Assembly: GCA_002448495.1 (NCBI GenBank) | Contig: DJYL01000102.1 | Location: forward strand, 1 to 7,333 | Origin: Pseudoselenomonas ruminantium | Lineage (GTDB): Bacteria > Bacillota > Negativicutes > Selenomonadales > Selenomonadaceae | Direction: 5' to 3' | DNA: 7,333 bases | Part shown: in pieces, positions 1 to 6,700 of the stretch | Position numbering within the stretch: the first letter of the stretch is position 1 | Layout: each line of letters starts with the position of its first letter | Made by a program: the position numbers and the translations under genes | Notes under the pieces: model-generated | Told to the model about the DNA's origin: nothing | Database searches by the model: none | What the model saw: only the letters and a program-made list of their open reading frames with translations

Positions 1-182
1 TTATAAAGATAGACAAGTGGTATCTAAGCAGTCAATTATGCCATATTTGCGGCTACCAAAATGACGAAACTAAAAACTTATCTGTGAGAGAATGGGATTG
101 TCCCGCTTGTGGCAGTCACCATAACCGCGATAAAAACGCTGCAATAAATATTCGAGAAGAAGCTAGACGAATATCTGCCTAA
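1..182 (+). CDS. tnpB: TnpB (OrfB) of an IS200/IS605-family element, C-terminal fragment
   Basis: The reading frame is open from the window edge (first full codon at 3) to TAA at 180-182, giving the last 59 residues. It shows the typical TnpB end: a four-cysteine zinc finger (CHIC, then CPAC 24 residues after the first pair) followed by [12 protein letters not shown], which carries the third RuvC catalytic aspartate (RDxNAAxNI). TnpB is an RNA-guided DNA nuclease of IS200/IS605 and IS607 elements and the ancestor of Cas12; it works with an omega RNA read from the element's 3' end. The upstream part, with the other RuvC residues, is outside the window, so whether the gene is intact cannot be told, and neither can the presence of a tnpA partner. 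The family is certain from these motifs. The fragment is richer in A and T than the metabolic genes further along, in line with transfer. Confidence 0.95.
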
Positions 183-571: not shown

Positions 572-603
572 AAAAAGCAAGGAACCTGTAACAGAAGTTC
601 CTT
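572..603 (-). terminator. Intrinsic terminator of the exported MBL-fold hydrolase gene
   Basis: AAGGAAC (579-585) and GTTCCTT (597-603) form a perfect 7-bp stem around 11 nt. Read on the minus strand the stem is followed by GC and then five T (complement of 572-576). The TAA stop of the hydrolase gene (602-604) lies inside the stem. On the plus strand the same hairpin is followed by ACTGTTTGTATTT, so it may weakly terminate the small gene too. Confidence 0.7.
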
Positions 604-1534
604 ACTGTTTGTATTTGTCAATGGCCTCCTGTGCCATTTTCCGGAAGACATCTTCATACTCGCGGTACTTTTTCTGGCCGATAACAAAGGGATGGGGCTG
701 GCCGGGGCGGCGATGCTTGAGTTTTTCCAGACGGGCGAAGGTATCGTCCACCCAGCCATGGGCGCTCATTTCCACATCAACCTGAAAATCAGCGGTGTAC
801 TTGGCAAAGTAGTTTACTGCGCTTAGATAGAGGTAATTCATTTCCAGATTGGCCGGTGTGCCGGTGCCGCCCCAAATGGCCACATGATGTTTTTCACCAT
901 GGTCGGTGACGGGAACAATCATGGACAGACAGCCCGGGGTATGACCGGGGGTGAGTACGAGGAAAATACTGGTGTCGCCCAAGGTTATGGTCTGACGGTC
1001 ATTCAGTTCGATGTCAATATGGGGACGTACGCCGGAAAAAGCGTTTTGGGCGGGAATTACCGAATACCAGTTGCTGTCAATGATATTGATGCCGATTTTG
1101 GCCTGAGGCGCATATTTATCCTTGAAGAACTGGGCTCCGCCGTAGTGGTCGCTGTGGCCGTGGGTGAGGAGAATATAGCGGGTGTCGGCAGGGGATAAGC
1201 TCAGCTTTTTCATGTTGGCGGCGGCATAGTCGGCATCCTGCTCGTCCCAGCCGGAGTCAATCATGATAAGACCTGCGCTGGTGCGCACAACAAATTGGGC
1301 TACGGATATGGAGCCGATGTAGAAAAGGTTGTCAAAGACCTGTACAGGTTCAATGGGCGTGCGGTCAAATAAATAGTGCATGGCTGTTTCGCCGGTGGCT
1401 TCCTCTGGCGAATGGGGATATTCTGTGGCAGAGGAAGCCAGTGCCTGCGGGCCGCCCCATAGCAGGCCGGCGGTCAGAGCCAGACTGCCTTTGAGAAAAT
1501 TCTTTCTGGAAATATGGGCATTGAAATTCATCAT
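602..1534 (-). CDS. Exported metallo-beta-lactamase-fold hydrolase, B3-like ligand set
   Basis: The product has 310 residues from ATG at 1534. A TTG directly before it could add one residue, but AGGAG (1541-1545) is spaced 7 nt from the ATG and only 4 from the TTG. Residues 1-33 are an export signal: SRKNFLKG at 9-16, a hydrophobic stretch, then QALA as likely cleavage site. It looks like a Tat signal (S-R-R-x-F-L-K) with lysine in place of the second arginine. The MBL fold follows: THGHSDH supplies H125, H127, D129 and H130, TPGHTPG supplies H198, and MSAHGW supplies H259. These match the six zinc ligands of subclass B3. Where lactonase- and glyoxalase-type relatives carry a bridging aspartate there is WGGTG, which also favours the B3 lineage. 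The C-terminal region (KLKHRRPGQPHPFV) resembles the B3 end as well. Likely a periplasmic or surface zinc hydrolase; a beta-lactam substrate is possible but unproven. It has its own promoter, apparently controlled by the MarR protein encoded upstream. Confidence 0.9.
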   Translation of the reverse strand: MMNFNAHISRKNFLKGSLALTAGLLWGGPQALASSATEYPHSPEEATGETAMHYLFDRTPIEPVQVFDNLFYIGSISVAQFVVRTSAGLIMIDSGWDEQDADYAAANMKKLSLSPADTRYILLTHGHSDHYGGAQFFKDKYAPQAKIGINIIDSNWYSVIPAQNAFSGVRPHIDIELNDRQTITLGDTSIFLVLTPGHTPGCLSMIVPVTDHGEKHHVAIWGGTGTPANLEMNYLYLSAVNYFAKYTADFQVDVEMSAHGWVDDTFARLEKLKHRRPGQPHPFVIGQKKYREYEDVFRKMAQEAIDKYKQ

Positions 1535-1554
1535 CAAATCACTCCTGACAAAAA

Positions 1555-1602
1555 CAATAGTACGTTAACATACTGTTATAATAGTATGTTAACGTACTAT
1601 TG
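1555..1602. promoter_or_regulatory. Perfect 20-bp inverted repeat: double MarR-type operator
   Basis: The left arm CAATAGTACGTTAACATACT (1555-1574) is the exact reverse complement of the right arm (1583-1602); the spacer is GTTATAAT. Each arm also contains its own 16-bp near-palindrome, AGTA(C/T)GTTAAC(A/G)TACT, centred on GTTAAC with one mismatched pair, so the whole reads as two dyads whose centres are 24 bp apart. MarR dimers bind 16-20 bp palindromes of this kind. One dyad lies between the -35 and -10 of the hydrolase promoter and the other overlaps the start of transcription, so a bound protein would block polymerase. That the neighbouring MarR protein is the binder is inference from position and size. 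Confidence 0.8.
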
Positions 1603-1606
1603 TCAA
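1578..1606 (-). promoter_or_regulatory. Promoter of the exported MBL-fold hydrolase gene
   Basis: On the minus strand TTGACA (complement of 1601-1606) and TATTAT (complement of 1578-1583) are separated by exactly 17 bp. Transcription would begin near 1571, leaving a leader of roughly 37 nt before the ATG. The -35 follows directly after the T-run of the marR terminator, so the hydrolase gene is a separate transcription unit. The operator dyads fill the spacer and the early leader. Confidence 0.8.
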
Positions 1607-1607
1607 G

Positions 1608-1637
1608 AAAAAAATCACAGCTTTGCCGTGATTTTTT
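1608..1637 (-). terminator. Intrinsic terminator of the marR gene
   Basis: On the minus strand the sequence reads AAAAAATCACGGC, loop AAA, GCTGTGATTTTTTT: a 7-bp GC-containing core with one G-U pair, extended by A-T pairs and ending in seven T. The codons for the last residues of the regulator (KITAKL) and its TGA stop (1615-1617) form the stem, so the gene and its terminator overlap. On the plus strand the hairpin is also followed by six T and could act in both directions. Confidence 0.85.
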
Positions 1638-2040
1638 CTTCCAGTCTGGTGAGAATTCTGGTAAAGCTGGCCAGTTCCTCGGCCGTAAGCCCGGATTCGG
1701 CTTCCTGCATAAAGTCATAGTCAAGTTCAGCCAGTTTCTTAGTAAGCTGAACGCCAGCGGCAGTGGCTTGCAGCTTATAGAATCGTTTATCGTTGTCATC
1801 TTTTTGACGGGTCAATAATTCTTTTTTTATCAACCTGTCCACCAAAGCCTTGGTGCTGTTCTTGTCTTTTTCCAGCCGTGCAGATAAATCCTGCTGGGAT
1901 AGGTTTTTCTCCTTGCTGACAATTTGCAGCACAACCCATTGTTCCGGGGTGATGTCATAATCGGCCAAGGCTTTGGTCATGAACTGATGAATCTTGCGGG
2001 CTGTGCGGCAGATGATATAGCCTGTAGTTTCCTGTAGCAT
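1615..2040 (-). CDS. MarR-family transcriptional regulator
   Basis: 141 residues, the usual MarR size. ATG at 2040 is preceded by GAGGAG at 6 nt. The layout is typical: an N-terminal helix used for dimerisation (about 5-28), TPEQWVVLQIV at 31-41, a winged helix-turn-helix from about 47 (LSQQDLSARLEKDKNSTKALVDRLIKKELL) and a wing with D-N-D-K-R at 82-86, where MarR proteins keep an aspartate-arginine pair, then long C-terminal dimerisation helices. MarR proteins are dimeric repressors that release DNA on binding phenolic or other small ligands, or on cysteine oxidation. The only cysteine is C11 in the first helix; whether it senses oxidants is unknown. The gene lies upstream of the exported hydrolase on the same strand, and the hydrolase promoter carries a double palindrome of the right size, so that gene is its likely target. 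I see no copy of that palindrome in front of marR itself. Confidence 0.93.
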   Translation of the reverse strand: MLQETTGYIICRTARKIHQFMTKALADYDITPEQWVVLQIVSKEKNLSQQDLSARLEKDKNSTKALVDRLIKKELLTRQKDDNDKRFYKLQATAAGVQLTKKLAELDYDFMQEAESGLTAEELASFTRILTRLEEKITAKL

Positions 2041-2069: not shown

Positions 2070-2094
2070 ATTATAGCACATTTTGACCAGTCAA
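2070..2094 (-). promoter_or_regulatory. Probable promoter of marR
   Basis: On the minus strand TGCTATAAT (complement of 2070-2078) is a perfect extended -10 (TGN-TATAAT), 29 bp before the ATG. A TTGACT lies only 13 bp further upstream, too close for a normal -35, and is one half of a small dyad TTGAC-N2-GTCAA (2083-2094) that could be a regulator site. The extended -10 can work without a good -35. Confidence 0.55.
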
Positions 2095-2288: not shown

Positions 2289-3080
2289 TTAATACATTAC
2301 CGACTGTCCGTCGTTGGGTATATCATAATTTGTCACGCCACGTTCTGCCAGTTTGCCTTTCAGCGTATGACGAGTGAGAGCGGCGTGAGCCACATTGTCC
2401 AAATGGGTCAGATACAGTCTGGCATTCGGTGCAGTTTTGGCAACGCAGTGGACATCTTCGGCATCCATGATCAGCCGGCCATTTTCTACCGTCTCGGCGG
2501 CACAGCAGTTGAGCGCCACGACTTCCGGCTGGCAGCGTTTCAACGTGTCTGCTACTGCCGGATACCATATCGTATCACCTGCCAGATAAAAGGTTTTTTC
2601 CTTTTCGTTTTCAAACATAACGCCCATCGCATCACCACAAGGGGTTACCGTGCCATGGAGGGCCGGTACCTTGGTCAGTTTTGCCTGACCAAACATCATG
2701 CCGGTTTCGCACAGTACGGTCACATTCTGGAACCCGGATTTTTTGAAGACAGCGGCATCTTCCTCATTTTGGCAGATTACAGGCACAGTTTTGTCCAGAG
2801 GTGTGCCAACAGTACCATCCATGGCCATATCAATGTGATCGGGATGGATATGCGTTACCAGATAATAATCGACGCCGGCGAGAATTTCTTTCAGCGGCAT
2901 GGGCAGGTCATAGAAGGGCATGGGCAAATGTTCCTTCATTTCATCCGGCACATGATAAGGCCTGCCGGGAACATCAACGAAGGAAAACTGGTGCTTGGGC
3001 ATCAGCCACGGGTCAATCAGGAAAATTTTACCGGCATATTCAAGACGATTGGTGGCATTGCGGATTTGTGTCAGTTTCAT
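2289..3080 (-). CDS. Cytoplasmic MBL-fold metal-dependent hydrolase, UlaG-like
   Basis: 263 residues; ATG at 3080 has AAGGAG (complement of 3091-3096) at 8 nt. No signal peptide: the protein begins directly with the first beta strands (MKLTQIRNATNRLEYAGKIFLIDPWL). This start, with a short strand then IDPWL, is typical of the UlaG-type branch (L-ascorbate-6-phosphate lactonase and uncharacterised relatives). Metal ligands visible are H77, H79, D81 and H82 (THIHPDH), H142 (ALHGT), the bridging D169 (LAGDT) and H226 (LTHLDNV). It is therefore a different branch from the exported hydrolase at 602-1534, which lacks the bridging aspartate. An insertion around residues 27-62 (PKHQF to PMPLKE) is rich in proline and methionine and may shape the active site. 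It is transcribed divergently from the LysR-type regulator, which usually marks a target gene. Lactone, phosphodiester or similar bonds are possible substrates; the real one is unknown. Confidence 0.88.
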   Translation of the reverse strand: MKLTQIRNATNRLEYAGKIFLIDPWLMPKHQFSFVDVPGRPYHVPDEMKEHLPMPFYDLPMPLKEILAGVDYYLVTHIHPDHIDMAMDGTVGTPLDKTVPVICQNEEDAAVFKKSGFQNVTVLCETGMMFGQAKLTKVPALHGTVTPCGDAMGVMFENEKEKTFYLAGDTIWYPAVADTLKRCQPEVVALNCCAAETVENGRLIMDAEDVHCVAKTAPNARLYLTHLDNVAHAALTRHTLKGKLAERGVTNYDIPNDGQSVMY

Positions 3081-3230: not shown

Positions 3231-4160
3231 TTGAATCAGAAACAAATGGAATATTTCCTCGAAGTATATAGGCAGGGCAATATTCAGAACGCTGCGGACA
3301 GGCTCTTTGTGTCACGGCAGGGAATCAGCAAGATGCTCAGGACTTTGGAGGAGGAACTGGGGCAGCTGCTCTTTATCCGCAATCCGCATGGCCTTGTTCC
3401 GACAGATTACGCCAATGCACTTTTACCGCATGTGCAGCGGCTGCTGGCAGAATATCAGAGCATTGCGAATATGAGCACCTTGGCTTCACAATCCAAAAGT
3501 GTGGTGACTATCTACGCACTTGACCATATTATGGCTTACTTTGGTGCAGAATTTCTTTGGGATTTTCACCGTGCATGCCCGGATATTATCCTCAGCACTG
3601 TGGATACGACAGATGATGCAGCCTTGAAAGGTGTGTTGGAGAAGCAATGCAACTTTGCTATCGTCACGGGAGAGGTTGACCAAAATCGTTTTGCGGCTGA
3701 ACCATTATTTTTTTCCCGGTACTGTGTGCGGCTGCATCGTGAGCATTTGCTGGCCAGCAAAGAAAAGATTGCCTATGCTGATCTGGAGGGGGCGCGTATC
3801 GTCAGCAAGGGGCGGGCTTATCGATGTTTTCGGCATAATATTGATAGGTATATCTTATTGCCGGGGATTCAGGTAGACCTTGTAGCCGAAACAGCCGATG
3901 AAATGCTTATCACCGATATGATACTCCGGCATCAGGCAATAAATCTGGGCTATGACTACGCTGCTGTGTTGAATCTTCATCCGGATATTGTGGTAAAAGT
4001 TTTAGACAAAGCTGATGAGCTTGGTCAGACTGTATACCTTGTCTGGGACAAGACCACAGTCCTCACCCAAGCCAGCCAAAAGTTTCGTGCCTTTCTGCTC
4101 GAATGGCTGTCGCAAAATGGTAAAGACAAGGTCGTCTTAGATTGCAGCAAAAAGCAATAA
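3231..4160 (+). CDS. LysR-family transcriptional regulator
   Basis: 309 residues, normal for the family. The start is TTG at 3231, set by GGGGAG (3218-3223) 7 nt upstream; the ATG at 3224 is out of frame, and the protein begins exactly where LysR proteins do (MNQKQMEYFLEVYRQGNIQNAADRLFVSRQGISKMLRTLEEELGQLLF). The helix-turn-helix spans about 18-38, a linker helix follows (58-85), and the effector domain runs from about 90 to 295, in two lobes (VVTIYALDHIMAYF onwards; then the return strands near the C-terminus). No transmembrane segment. It is divergent from the UlaG-like hydrolase gene, across 150 bp holding nested inverted repeats, and followed after 14 bp by uvrA2, so it probably regulates both. 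The ligand cannot be read from the sequence. The 20-residue tail (NGKDKVVLDCSKKQ) is specific to this protein. Confidence 0.93.
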   Translation: MNQKQMEYFLEVYRQGNIQNAADRLFVSRQGISKMLRTLEEELGQLLFIRNPHGLVPTDYANALLPHVQRLLAEYQSIANMSTLASQSKSVVTIYALDHIMAYFGAEFLWDFHRACPDIILSTVDTTDDAALKGVLEKQCNFAIVTGEVDQNRFAAEPLFFSRYCVRLHREHLLASKEKIAYADLEGARIVSKGRAYRCFRHNIDRYILLPGIQVDLVAETADEMLITDMILRHQAINLGYDYAAVLNLHPDIVVKVLDKADELGQTVYLVWDKTTVLTQASQKFRAFLLEWLSQNGKDKVVLDCSKKQ

Positions 4161-4174
4161 TGGAGGGTTGAGAA

Positions 4175-6700
4175 ATGGACAATAAGGAACGTCCTAAAAA
4201 TATTATAGTCAGGGGCGCTCGCGTGCATAATCTGAAAAATATTGATGTGGATATCCCCTTAGGCAAGTTGGTAGCCATTGCCGGGGTATCCGGCTCGGGA
4301 AAATCGTCTTTGGCGTTGGGCACCTTGTATGCGGAGGGCTCACGTCGTTATCTGGAGGCGCTGTCTACCTATACACGCCGCCGTATTACGCAGGCCGGCA
4401 AAGCCGATGTGGAAGAAATCCGTCATGTACCGGCGGCCTTGGCGCTTCATCAGCGTCCGGGGATTCCCGGTGTGCGCAGTACCTTTGGTACGGCGTCGGA
4501 ACTGTTGAACAGCCTGCGCCTGCTGTTTTCCCGCCTGGGCAGTCATACCTGTCCCAATGGGCATCTTTGTCCGCCCAATATGGATGTGGCGCTGATGCTG
4601 CCGACCAAATGCCCTATCTGCGGCGAGGAGTTTTACGGCCCCGGCGCTGAGGCCATGGCCTTTAATTCGGAAGGGGCCTGCCCGCATTGTTCAGGGACAG
4701 GGATTGTGCGTACAGTTGATGAGAGCAGCCTCGTGCCGGACGAAAGTCTGTCCATTGCAGAGGGGGCGGTGGCTCCGTGGCAGACGCTTATGTGGTCATT
4801 GATGAAGGATATTGCCAAGGAGATGGGCGTGCGGATTGATGTGCCTTTCCGTGATTTGACACCGGCGGAAAAGGATATTGTCTTTCATGGCCCTGCAGAG
4901 AAAAAGCATATCCTCTATGTCAATGAAAAGACCAATGTAGCTGCAGAAATGGATTTTACCTATTATAACGCGATTTATACGGTGGAAAATGCGTTGGCGA
5001 AAGTCAAAGATGAAAAGGGCATGAAGCGGGTCGAAAAATTCCTGCATGAAGCCGCCTGTCCGGAATGCGGGGGCACACGGCTGTCGGAGAAAGTGCGCTC
5101 GACCAAGCTGGCCGGGAAAAATTTGGCTGAGGCTACAGCCATGACTTTAGATGAACTGATTCCCTGGGTTAAGGCTGTGCCGGATACCCTGCCGCAGGAA
5201 ATGCGTCCTATGGCGGAAAGTATCAGCGAATCGTTTTTGGATAATGCCCGCAGGTTGAAGGAACTCGGTCTGGGATATCTGTCCCTTGACCGTGCCAGCA
5301 GCACACTGTCTACCGGCGAGCGCCAGCGCGTGCAGCTGGCCAGAGCTGTGCGCAATGAAACCACAGGGGTGCTTTATGTACTCGATGAGCCGAGTATTGG
5401 CCTGCATCCGGCCAATATCGAGGGACTTTTGGATGTGATTGACAGCTTGCTGCGCGACGGCAATTCCGTGGTTCTGGTCGATCATGATGTGCATGTATTG
5501 CAGAATGCTGATTATCTGATTGAACTGGGGCCGCTGGCTGGCAGTGAAGGGGGCAATTTGCTGTTCGCCGGAGACATGCAGGCGGCAGTAAACAGCAAAG
5601 TCTCCAAGATTGCTCCTTTTATGCGAGGCGGGGCAAATTGCAATTTGCGGCAGCGTACGTCTTGGGCAGAGATGTTTGCGTTGGGCACAATCCATTTGGA
5701 AACGAATCCGCTGCATACGGTAAAGCCCTTGCAGGCAGATATTCCCAAGGGCAGATTGACCGTGGTTACCGGTGTATCCGGTTCGGGCAAGACCACCATG
5801 GTGCTCGAATGTCTGCTGCCTGCATTAACGGCCAATGCGGAAGGCCGCAAGCTGCCGCCGCAGGTCAAGGCCATAACCGCCGCGGGCATACGCCGGGCTA
5901 ATCTGATTGATGCCTCGCCCATCGGCATCAATATCCGTTCCACGGTAGCGACATATAGTGGTGTACTTGATGAATTGCGCAAACTCTATGCCGGTACTGC
6001 CATGGCTAAAGAGAAAAAATGGAAGGCAGGAACTTTTTCCTATAATACGGGCAAGCTGCGCTGTCCGACTTGTGATGGCACGGGCCAGATTTCCCTCGAT
6101 GTGCAGTTCCTGCCCGATGTAACGATTACCTGCCCGGACTGCAATGGTCAGCGTTATAGCGAGGCAGTCAAAGAGGTACTTTGGCAGGCGGATGGTGCAG
6201 AGCGTGGCTATACTTTGCCGGAAATACTATCCTTGACCGTAAAAGAGGCGCTGCCGCTTTTTGCACATCAAAAAAAGATTAAGGGGAAACTTTCGACTTT
6301 GTATGACTTAGGTCTGGGCTATTTGACTTTGGGCGAAGATACACCTGCCCTCTCCGGTGGAGAAGCTCAACGCTTGAAACTGGCCAGTGAGATGGGACGT
6401 TCGCAGGCAGATTCTGTCTTTATCTTTGATGAGCCGACTATCGGCTTGCATCCGTTGGATGTGCAGGTACTTTTGCAGGTTTTTGACCGTCTGGTGGCTG
6501 CCGGTGCGACTGTGATTGTCATTGAGCATGATTTGGATGTAATCATCAATGCGGATTACCTGATTGATATGGGCCCGGAAGGCGGCGAAAAAGGCGGGCG
6601 TATCGTAGCCTGCGGCACGCCGGAAATGGCAGCAGAGAGCAAAGAGAGTATTACGGGAAAATATATCGCCAGAGAGGTAGGGCAGCAAAAAGTTTTATGA
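4175..6700 (+). CDS. uvrA2: Class II UvrA (UvrA2), UvrA-like ABC ATPase lacking the UvrB-binding domain
   Basis: 841 residues, about 100 shorter than normal UvrA (about 940). ATG at 4175 with GGAGGG 7 nt upstream. First ATPase half: Walker A GVSGSGKSS (37-45), signature LSTGERQR (378-385), Walker B VLYVLDEPSIGLH (399-411), H-loop DHD at 436-438. Second half: Walker A GVSGSGKTT (533-541), signature LSGGEAQR (727-734), Walker B FIFDEPTIGLH (749-759), EHD at 784-786. Zinc fingers C146-x2-C149 with C169-x2-C172, and C630-x2-C633 with C653-x2-C656. In standard UvrA about 118 residues that bind UvrB lie between the region of CPNGH (126-130) and the first zinc finger; here only about 15 residues separate them. 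This loss defines class II UvrA, which includes DrrC of the daunorubicin producer, a drug-resistance protein, and Deinococcus UvrA2. It should bind DNA and hydrolyse ATP but not load UvrB. The first signature departs from LSGGE; I believe this is normal for this subgroup. Probably co-transcribed with the LysR gene. Confidence 0.92.
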   Translation: MDNKERPKNIIVRGARVHNLKNIDVDIPLGKLVAIAGVSGSGKSSLALGTLYAEGSRRYLEALSTYTRRRITQAGKADVEEIRHVPAALALHQRPGIPGVRSTFGTASELLNSLRLLFSRLGSHTCPNGHLCPPNMDVALMLPTKCPICGEEFYGPGAEAMAFNSEGACPHCSGTGIVRTVDESSLVPDESLSIAEGAVAPWQTLMWSLMKDIAKEMGVRIDVPFRDLTPAEKDIVFHGPAEKKHILYVNEKTNVAAEMDFTYYNAIYTVENALAKVKDEKGMKRVEKFLHEAACPECGGTRLSEKVRSTKLAGKNLAEATAMTLDELIPWVKAVPDTLPQEMRPMAESISESFLDNARRLKELGLGYLSLDRASSTLSTGERQRVQLARAVRNETTGVLYVLDEPSIGLHPANIEGLLDVIDSLLRDGNSVVLVDHDVHVLQNADYLIELGPLAGSEGGNLLFAGDMQAAVNSKVSKIAPFMRGGANCNLRQRTSWAEMFALGTIHLETNPLHTVKPLQADIPKGRLTVVTGVSGSGKTTMVLECLLPALTANAEGRKLPPQVKAITAAGIRRANLIDASPIGINIRSTVATYSGVLDELRKLYAGTAMAKEKKWKAGTFSYNTGKLRCPTCDGTGQISLDVQFLPDVTITCPDCNGQRYSEAVKEVLWQADGAERGYTLPEILSLTVKEALPLFAHQKKIKGKLSTLYDLGLGYLTLGEDTPALSGGEAQRLKLASEMGRSQADSVFIFDEPTIGLHPLDVQVLLQVFDRLVAAGATVIVIEHDLDVIINADYLIDMGPEGGEKGGRIVACGTPEMAAESKESITGKYIAREVGQQKVL

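What the first reader, a model, noticed from the sequence alone, without database searches (positions are those of the whole stretch)
1555..1602. Perfect 20-bp inverted repeat built from two GTTAAC dyads on top of the hydrolase promoter
Seen directly: two exact 20-bp reverse-complement arms around 8 bp, each arm itself a 16-bp near-palindrome, covering the -10, the spacer and the transcription start of a consensus-like promoter. Such exactness, with the single internal mismatch mirrored between arms, suggests strong selection or recent duplication by inversion of one site. Dyad centres are 24 bp apart, which would put two dimers on roughly neighbouring faces and could allow tight cooperative repression.
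Basis: partly seen in the sequence, partly recalled or inferred. Interest (0 to 1): 0.7.

Follow-up and report, generated by a model that had tools for sequence, protein, structure and literature searches.

The report
Twin repressor docking sites, one promoter
Two near-identical 16-base palindromes lie on the predicted promoter of a predicted zinc hydrolase gene in a Selenomonas rumen bacterium; in the relatives compared here, from three bacterial phyla, such a palindrome (weak in one case) stands before this gene whenever a particular MarR-type gene is its neighbour and was absent in the four cases where it is not, so the palindromes are likely the docking sites of that predicted repressor.

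Summary
The repeat is real: exact 20-base arms at 1555-1574 and 1583-1602; the longest perfect repeat is 21, against at most 12 in 200 shuffles. It reads best as two palindromic sites, AGTAYGTNNACRTACT, 24 bp apart on a predicted promoter: one between -35 and -10, one over the predicted start. The downstream gene encodes a predicted exported metallo-hydrolase resembling subclass B3 metallo-beta-lactamases; marR lies just upstream. The dyad precedes the hydrolase gene in 22 of 22 loci with an adjacent KDxNxxK marR (Selenomonadaceae, Fusobacteriota, Campylobacterota; 21 at 0-2 mismatches, one at 3) and in 0 of 4 without. Exact dyads: two each in 9 of 9 genus genomes with the gene, 0 of 13 without. 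In 585 genomes 23 have exact matches: 18 at this promoter, 5 only inside ORFs; the reversed word, a control, is as common by chance, so place is the evidence. A related marR-MFS pair has the doublet. Exact arms are peculiar to the window; relatives match 16-18 of 20. Spacing varies (23, 24, 26 bp), which weakens phase-locked cooperativity. Binding, ligand and substrate are untested. New member of a known kind.

The parts
1583..1598 (.). dyad 1, spacer site: between -35 and -10; its last base in transcription order is the first base of the -10; centre -19.5 from the predicted start
   Evidence: same offset in 14 of 24 promoters scanned (13 Selenomonadaceae, G893)
1559..1574 (.). dyad 2, start site: centre about +4.5 from the predicted transcription start
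   Evidence: a site at +1.5 to +10.5 in 21 of 24 promoters, among them 8 of the 11 single-site loci of Fusobacteriota and Campylobacterota
1601..1606 (-). predicted -35, TTGACA
1578..1583 (-). predicted -10, TATTAT, 17-bp spacer
1542..1546 (-). Shine-Dalgarno-like AGGAG, 7 nt before ATG 1534
   Evidence: read from the sequence
602..1534 (-). regulated gene: 310-aa MBL-fold protein with twin-arginine-like export signal (recalled motif) and subclass-B3-like metal ligands (TTG 1537 also possible as start)
1615..2040 (-). marR gene, 141 aa, predicted repressor; recognition helix residues 60-72 (model), motif KDKNSTK
1605..1640 (-). hairpin with U-run at the end of marR: likely intrinsic terminator separating marR from the hydrolase transcript
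   Evidence: window only, z -4.21; by eye the stem is kept in the eight other g1 loci but not in G168
2070..2078 (-). extended -10 (TGCTATAAT) of a predicted separate marR promoter, without the dyad
   Evidence: read by eye (kept in L006-L011 and L013, not seen in L012); best dyad match upstream of the window's marR 5 mismatches

Best explanation
The 48-bp element consists of two copies of one palindromic site, AGTAYGTNNACRTACT, on the predicted promoter of an MBL-fold hydrolase gene, and these are likely the operators at which dimers of the adjacent MarR protein would block RNA polymerase. Shown: the two sites, their overlap with a predicted promoter, and the co-occurrence of such sites with the neighbouring marR gene in three phyla. 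Inferred: a MarR dimer on the spacer site would cover the spacer and -10, and one on the start site the initiation region, so either could bar open-complex formation. A small ligand, unknown here, would release the protein and let the exported hydrolase be made. In S. ruminantium-type genomes marR lies upstream of the hydrolase gene and is predicted to have its own promoter without the dyad, mostly with a terminator-like hairpin after it, so the repressor is likely made constitutively. In the Fusobacteriota, Campylobacterota and G038 loci the order is hydrolase then marR, predicted to be one operon, so the same site would also give autoregulation there. The twin arrangement would tighten repression; it need not be phase-locked.
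For: A dyad within 120 bp of the hydrolase start in 22 of 22 loci with adjacent KDxNxxK marR (best match 0 mismatches in 18, 1 in two, 2 in one, 3 in one); 0 of 4 without (best 5-6). Genus: 9 of 9 genomes with the gene have two exact dyads each; 13 of 13 without have none exact. Scans of 189 + 98 + 298 = 585 genomes: 23 have exact matches, 18 at this promoter (27 of 33 matches); the 6 matches in the other 5 genomes lie inside ORFs. The window's genome (68.8% complete) holds only these two exact sites. Two Selenomonas genomes without the hydrolase have the doublet (1-3 mismatches, 23 bp) before another marR of this kind (KDPNTVK, RDANTVK) followed by an MFS-type gene. In the MarR tree the 21 dyad-linked rows lie in one group of 24 (100/99); none of the 16 rows outside reads KDxNxxK. 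The spacer site has one offset (-19.5) in 14 promoters. The MarR model (mean pLDDT 90.1) has a MepR-DNA chain as its best fold match (TM 0.89).
Against: No binding, expression or start-site data. Loci are related, so counts are not independent. The four negatives are two near-identical Fusobacteriota and two distant homologues. Raw word counts prove nothing: the reversed word (control) matched 26 times in 25 of 585 genomes exactly (places not looked at), 63 against 23 times at up to 1 mismatch in the genus and 16 against 7 times in the window's genome at up to 2 mismatches. At 3 mismatches background is high: 21 of 67 distant loci have a match at up to 3 somewhere, so G801 (3 mismatches, 3.8% of shuffles as good, 32.5 bp past a poorly predicted start) is doubtful, and G595 has 2 mismatches and a weak predicted promoter. 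Three MarRs of the group (L142 Ilyobacter, L017, L018) have no such dyad near marR in the DNA held. marR frames look interrupted or short in G153 and G893. Within the S. ruminantium-type loci neither dyads nor hairpin show covariation clearly beyond shuffles.
Confidence: 0.85

Rival explanations
1. The long hairpin acts as RNA: a terminator or attenuator for read-through from marR, and the dyads are a by-product.
For: The RNA of 1602-1545 folds to -27.3 kcal/mol, z -8.95, and five U follow. In six distinct S. ruminantium-type rows 93.3% of hairpin cells pair, about as many as for the two dyads (92.7%), and one hairpin pair changes on both sides; its covariation score is reached by 68 of 500 shuffles, that of the dyads by 500 of 500.
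Against: 11 of 22 loci have a single dyad and therefore no such hairpin. A start near 1571 leaves only half the repeat in the hydrolase mRNA, which folds no better than shuffles (148 of 200 as good). marR already ends in its own terminator-like hairpin in the window. Arms match at 16-18 of 20 positions in 9 relatives.
Confidence: 0.06
2. The dyads bind another regulator, coded elsewhere, and the adjacent MarR protein acts on other targets.
For: Binding is untested; three MarRs of the group lack a dyad near marR in the DNA held. The marR promoters of the window and eight relatives show no copy.
Against: In the loci compared the dyad goes with the adjacent marR in three phyla and in the marR-MFS pair; G916, which groups with dyad-bearing hydrolases (87/93 with G744, below the tool's star), lacks both.
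Confidence: 0.07
3. The exactness of the arms in the window is a mutational product (template switching at a quasi-palindrome) and not selection for a long repeat; compatible with the operator reading.
For: Only the window among 10 loci has 20 of 20 matches; one pair (columns 9/40) changed on both sides. Mechanism recalled, no paper read.
Against: One case; independent point changes at a position that tolerates Y/R explain it too.
Confidence: 0.3

Closest known systems
MarR-family repressors with promoter-overlapping palindromes
   Same: Homodimeric winged-helix proteins whose sites are palindromes, often in marR gene promoters (passages of PMC5487221), 16-20 bp long (passage of PMC6018408); model closest to MepR-DNA 4lln.
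   Different: One spelling of the site (GTATGTTAACATAC) was searched in the paper library and not found; the S. ruminantium-type marR promoters looked at lack the site.
SCO3205 of Streptomyces coelicolor (MarR family)
   Same: Two separate operators in one intergenic region, predicted by comparing orthologues and then measured (passages of PMC3737563).
   Different: Its consensus is TTnAAnnnTCAA and the sites are assigned to two genes; here both sites sit on one predicted promoter.
BilQ (NCBIfam NF045593)
   Same: Best NCBIfam hit of the window MarR, 63.2 bits.
   Different: Below the 125-bit cut-off.
Subclass B3 metallo-beta-lactamases (Blr6230, known as BJP-1 by recall; FEZ-1; CAR)
   Same: About 94 bits to Blr6230 chains; HxHxDH, TPGH and the C-terminal His align.
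   Different: 119.8 bits against the 240-bit curated B3 cut-off; activity unknown.

Membership tests
MarR family | MarR HTH domain above Pfam gathering score | tested here: met
   PF01047, 50.9 bits against 24.6
MarR family | winged-helix fold | tested here: met
   predicted model, mean pLDDT 90.1; MepR-DNA chain TM 0.89
MarR family | palindromic site of 16-20 bp in a promoter beside the gene | tested here: met
   two 16-bp dyads; 22 of 22 paired loci, one of them weak; binding itself not tested
MarR family | autoregulation through the same site (frequent, not universal) | tested here: not met
   best match upstream of marR is 4-6 mismatches in the window and eight relatives; autoregulation predicted only where the order is hydrolase-marR
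MarR family | dimer binding and ligand release | not testable with these tools
   needs experiment
Subclass B3 metallo-beta-lactamase | six metal ligands | tested here: met
   H125, H127, D129, H130, H198, H259 invariant in six sequences, aligned to Blr6230; ligand roles recalled
Subclass B3 metallo-beta-lactamase | curated model cut-off | tested here: not met
   NF033105 119.8 bits, cut-off 240
Subclass B3 metallo-beta-lactamase | beta-lactam hydrolysis | not testable with these tools
   no assay
Intrinsic terminator | G+C-rich stem followed by a U-run | tested here: inconclusive
   20-bp stem but only 6 G-C pairs, five U

The most novel reading that the evidence does not exclude
A portable switch: a distinct MarR lineage (KDxNxxK recognition helix) with its own operator word, AGTAYGTNNACRTACT, travels with a B3-like periplasmic hydrolase among diderm bacteria of three phyla, is re-used on an MFS transporter gene, and is doubled into a spacer-plus-start operator in Selenomonadaceae. 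It would be a ligand-inducible MarR switch on a B3-type metallo-hydrolase, possibly a lactamase.
Probability: 0.35. Interest if true: 0.6.

Novelty: new member of a known kind. Interest (0 to 1): 0.42.

Why it matters
It gives a testable operator word for a MarR lineage for which the searches here found no study, tied by comparison to one target gene in three phyla, so repressor, operator and target can be tested in one gel shift. The natural set of single and double operators at 23-26 bp would let one measure what a second MarR site adds. If the hydrolase proved to be a lactamase, a MarR switch would differ from the AmpR and BlaI/BlaR control of many beta-lactamases (recalled).

Tried and rejected
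Genome-wide repeat or REP-like element: rejected; the window's genome holds only these two exact sites. Chance: rejected. Known RNA family: one Rfam hit at 1556-1601 (MIR7504, 29.6 bits against a gathering score of 83), taken as chance from the self-complementary repeat. A palindrome in the marR promoter, TTGACTGGTCAA at -54, differs in several relatives (by eye). Hairpin against dyads by pair counts within the S. ruminantium-type loci: does not separate them. Plasmids: the Cetobacterium hydrolase matched 16 records and the window MarR 5, all under 60% identity; of the 5 MarR places two were opened (L142, L143): no MBL-fold gene is annotated there, and the only dyad match at up to 3 mismatches is one in L142 at 172, 2.3 kb before marR. 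One-mismatch matches elsewhere: those of G145 and G151 lie inside ORFs; one in G156 and seven in G038, G189, G190 and G192 were not opened. Among 67 distant MarR loci 21 have a match at up to 3 mismatches, 20 of them at exactly 3; two of these (L030, L043, Paenibacillus) lie about 85 bp before marR and were not followed up.

Papers: searches for this pair or operator returned nothing; some searches returned listings (12, 4, 8 of 88, 2) whose titles and abstract starts do not concern it; (15 of 195 listed) served to find general MarR papers. PMC5487221, PMC6018408 and PMC3737563 were seen as passages only.

Rows dropped before counts: G1041, whose hydrolase lacks its 5' part in the 2191 bases held; the hydrolase fragments L099 and L100. 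G698 was left out of the ligand check and the hydrolase tree because its frame holds a TGA, but was counted for the dyad; G917 was left out of both as near-identical to G916. The MarR tree used 15 of the 67 distant loci L019-L085, plus L017, L018, L142 and L143, and not L013 or the MarR of G147. The hydrolase tree used 18 of the 26 loci and 12 of the 120 listed proteins (2056 found). Promoter weights are recalled approximations. The phylum scans are samples of larger groups, and the hydrolase searches used different limits (1e-20, 1e-40, 1e-60).

Full report
What is there. The window is contig C136 of a Selenomonas-type genome (2.1 Mb, 68.8% complete); the nearest named relatives by MarR are Selenomonas sp. 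ND2010 and S. ruminantium, 88-89% identical. On the minus strand marR (1615-2040) is followed by an MBL-fold gene (602-1534; ATG 1534 has AGGAG 7 nt before it). The inverted repeat fills most of the gap. Its arms are exact over 20 bp (21 with the next pair), where 200 dinucleotide shuffles reach at most 12. Each arm holds a 16-bp near-palindrome, and the sites are 24 bp apart. The best promoter-like site of the window, TTGACA-17-TATTAT, coincides with it.

Two sites rather than one repeat. In 9 further S. ruminantium-type loci (eight in the same genus g1, one in genus g22) both dyads are kept at exactly 24 bp, but the arms match each other at only 16-18 of 20 positions; dyad 1 shows TCAA or TTGA cores and dyad 2 TTAA or ATAA. 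Exact arms are therefore special to the window among these ten, whereas the two palindromes are the conserved thing. Pair counts within these loci do not separate hairpin from dyads (93.3% against 92.7% of cells; covariation reached by 68 and 500 of 500 shuffles). Comparison outside does: 11 of the 22 paired loci have a single dyad and no partner arm.

The dyad goes with the marR gene. Relatives of the MBL-fold gene were sought in 189 genomes of the family (11 with a match), a sample of 398 of the phylum (4), a sample of 298 Campylobacterota (5), 98 Fusobacteriota (8) and 380 of the class (12); the sets of the family, class and own phylum overlap. Of the 26 loci with an assessable upstream region, 22 have an adjacent marR whose recognition helix reads KDxNxxK. 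All 22 have a dyad within 120 bp of the start codon: best match 0 mismatches in 18, 1 in G038 and G698, 2 in G595, 3 in G801. The 4 without such a marR (G916, G917, G232, G433) have best matches of 5-6 mismatches. G916 groups with dyad-bearing genes in the tree (87/93 with G744, below the tool's star), which suggests loss of both. In the genus, 9 of 9 genomes with the gene carry two exact dyads each and 13 of 13 without carry none exact. Fisher values (6.7e-5 and 2.0e-6) are a guide only, since the loci are related.

Specificity. Exact matches to AGTAYGTNNACRTACT occur in 23 of 585 genomes scanned whole: 12 of 189 Selenomonadaceae, 8 of 98 Fusobacteriota and 3 of 298 Campylobacterota. In 18 genomes (27 of 33 matches) the match is this promoter; in the other five (G047, G050, G898, G965, G783; 6 matches) every match lies inside an ORF. 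The tool's control, the word read backwards, gave 26 matches in 25 genomes, whose places I did not look at; so it is the place of the matches and not their number that counts. Four paired genomes are missed by the exact word (G038, G595, G698, G801). At 3 mismatches the word is common by chance: 21 of 67 distant MarR loci have a match at up to 3 mismatches somewhere (20 at 3, one at 1), so the G801 dyad is doubtful.

A second target. G143 and G159, Selenomonas genomes without the MBL-fold gene, carry the doublet (1 to 3 mismatches, 23 bp apart) before another marR of the same kind (KDPNTVK and RDANTVK), followed by an MFS-type gene (Pfam run on the G143 copy only). The site thus seems to go with the MarR type and not with the hydrolase as such. 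In a tree of 40 MarR rows the 21 dyad-linked rows fall in one group of 24 (100/99); the other three rows (Ilyobacter L142 and L017, L018) also read KDxNxxK but show no dyad near marR in the DNA held, an open exception.

Geometry. With predicted starts, the spacer site is centred at -19.5 in 14 of 24 promoters (13 Selenomonadaceae and G893). A start-side site is centred between +1.5 and +10.5 in 21 of 24; the three others are G893 (spacer site only), G595 (-1.5, weak promoter) and G801 (+32.5, weak promoter). The 13 Selenomonadaceae promoters have both sites, the other 11 one. Spacings of 24 (ten loci), 26 (G038) and 23 (two MFS loci) turn the second site by about 103, 171 and 69 degrees, so a rigid side-by-side contact is unlikely to be essential. 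Doubling is not tied to gene order, because G038 has hydrolase-marR order and two sites.

Wiring. In the Fusobacteriota, Campylobacterota and G038 pairs the order is hydrolase-marR, and the dyad would control both genes. In S. ruminantium-type genomes marR comes first; its upstream region has no dyad (best 4-6 mismatches in the window and eight relatives), an extended -10 is kept in the window and seven of those eight (by eye), and the window's marR ends in a terminator-like hairpin whose stem is seen by eye in the other g1 loci but not in G168. The repressor is therefore predicted to be made constitutively there.

The proteins. The MarR model is a winged helix (mean pLDDT 90.1) with recognition helix 60-72, and its best fold match is a MepR-DNA chain. 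The MBL-fold protein shares the six ligands of subclass B3 enzymes and about 94 bits with Blr6230 (BJP-1 by recall) but stays below the curated B3 cut-off. HxHxDH and TPGH are present in 22 of 22 sequences read (21 paired loci and G916); the C-terminal AH motif was found in 21 of 22 (not by that pattern in G801). N-termini look like export signals, twin-arginine-like (recalled motif) in S. ruminantium-type proteins. Whether it cleaves lactams is unknown.

Verdict. It is a new member of a known kind with a clean cross-phylum signature.

Noticed in passing
window 3-182 (+): C-terminal fragment of a TnpB-like protein (PF07282, 60.8 bits), followed at about 183-330 by a stretch that looks like the 3' end of an IS605-type guide RNA (recalled resemblance; no Rfam match there).
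   Followed up: partly
window 2289-3080 (-) and 3231-4160 (+): A second MBL-fold gene (PF12706) divergent from a LysR gene; likely a separate regulator-target pair.
   Followed up: no
window 4175-6700 (+): 841-aa UvrA-like protein, 721.4 bits against the 729.8 cut-off of TIGR00630, shorter than the 924-position model.
   Followed up: no
L099 and L100 (G148:C44, G146:C2): Fragments of the same MBL-fold gene elsewhere in two Selenomonas genomes, without a marR hit; no dyad at up to 1 mismatch, one 2-mismatch word in L100.
   Followed up: partly
L131, L092, L141: Interrupted or short frames: an in-frame TGA in the hydrolase of G698, a broken marR match in G153, a 104-aa marR in G893; could be assembly errors.
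   Followed up: no
G143, G159 (L101, L112): A marR-MFS gene pair under the same operator doublet in Selenomonas genomes that lack the hydrolase.
   Followed up: partly
L030 at 2917, L043 at 2915: Three-mismatch dyad words about 85 bp before marR in two Paenibacillus loci, sharing TTTACATGCT; chance or a diverged operator.
   Followed up: no
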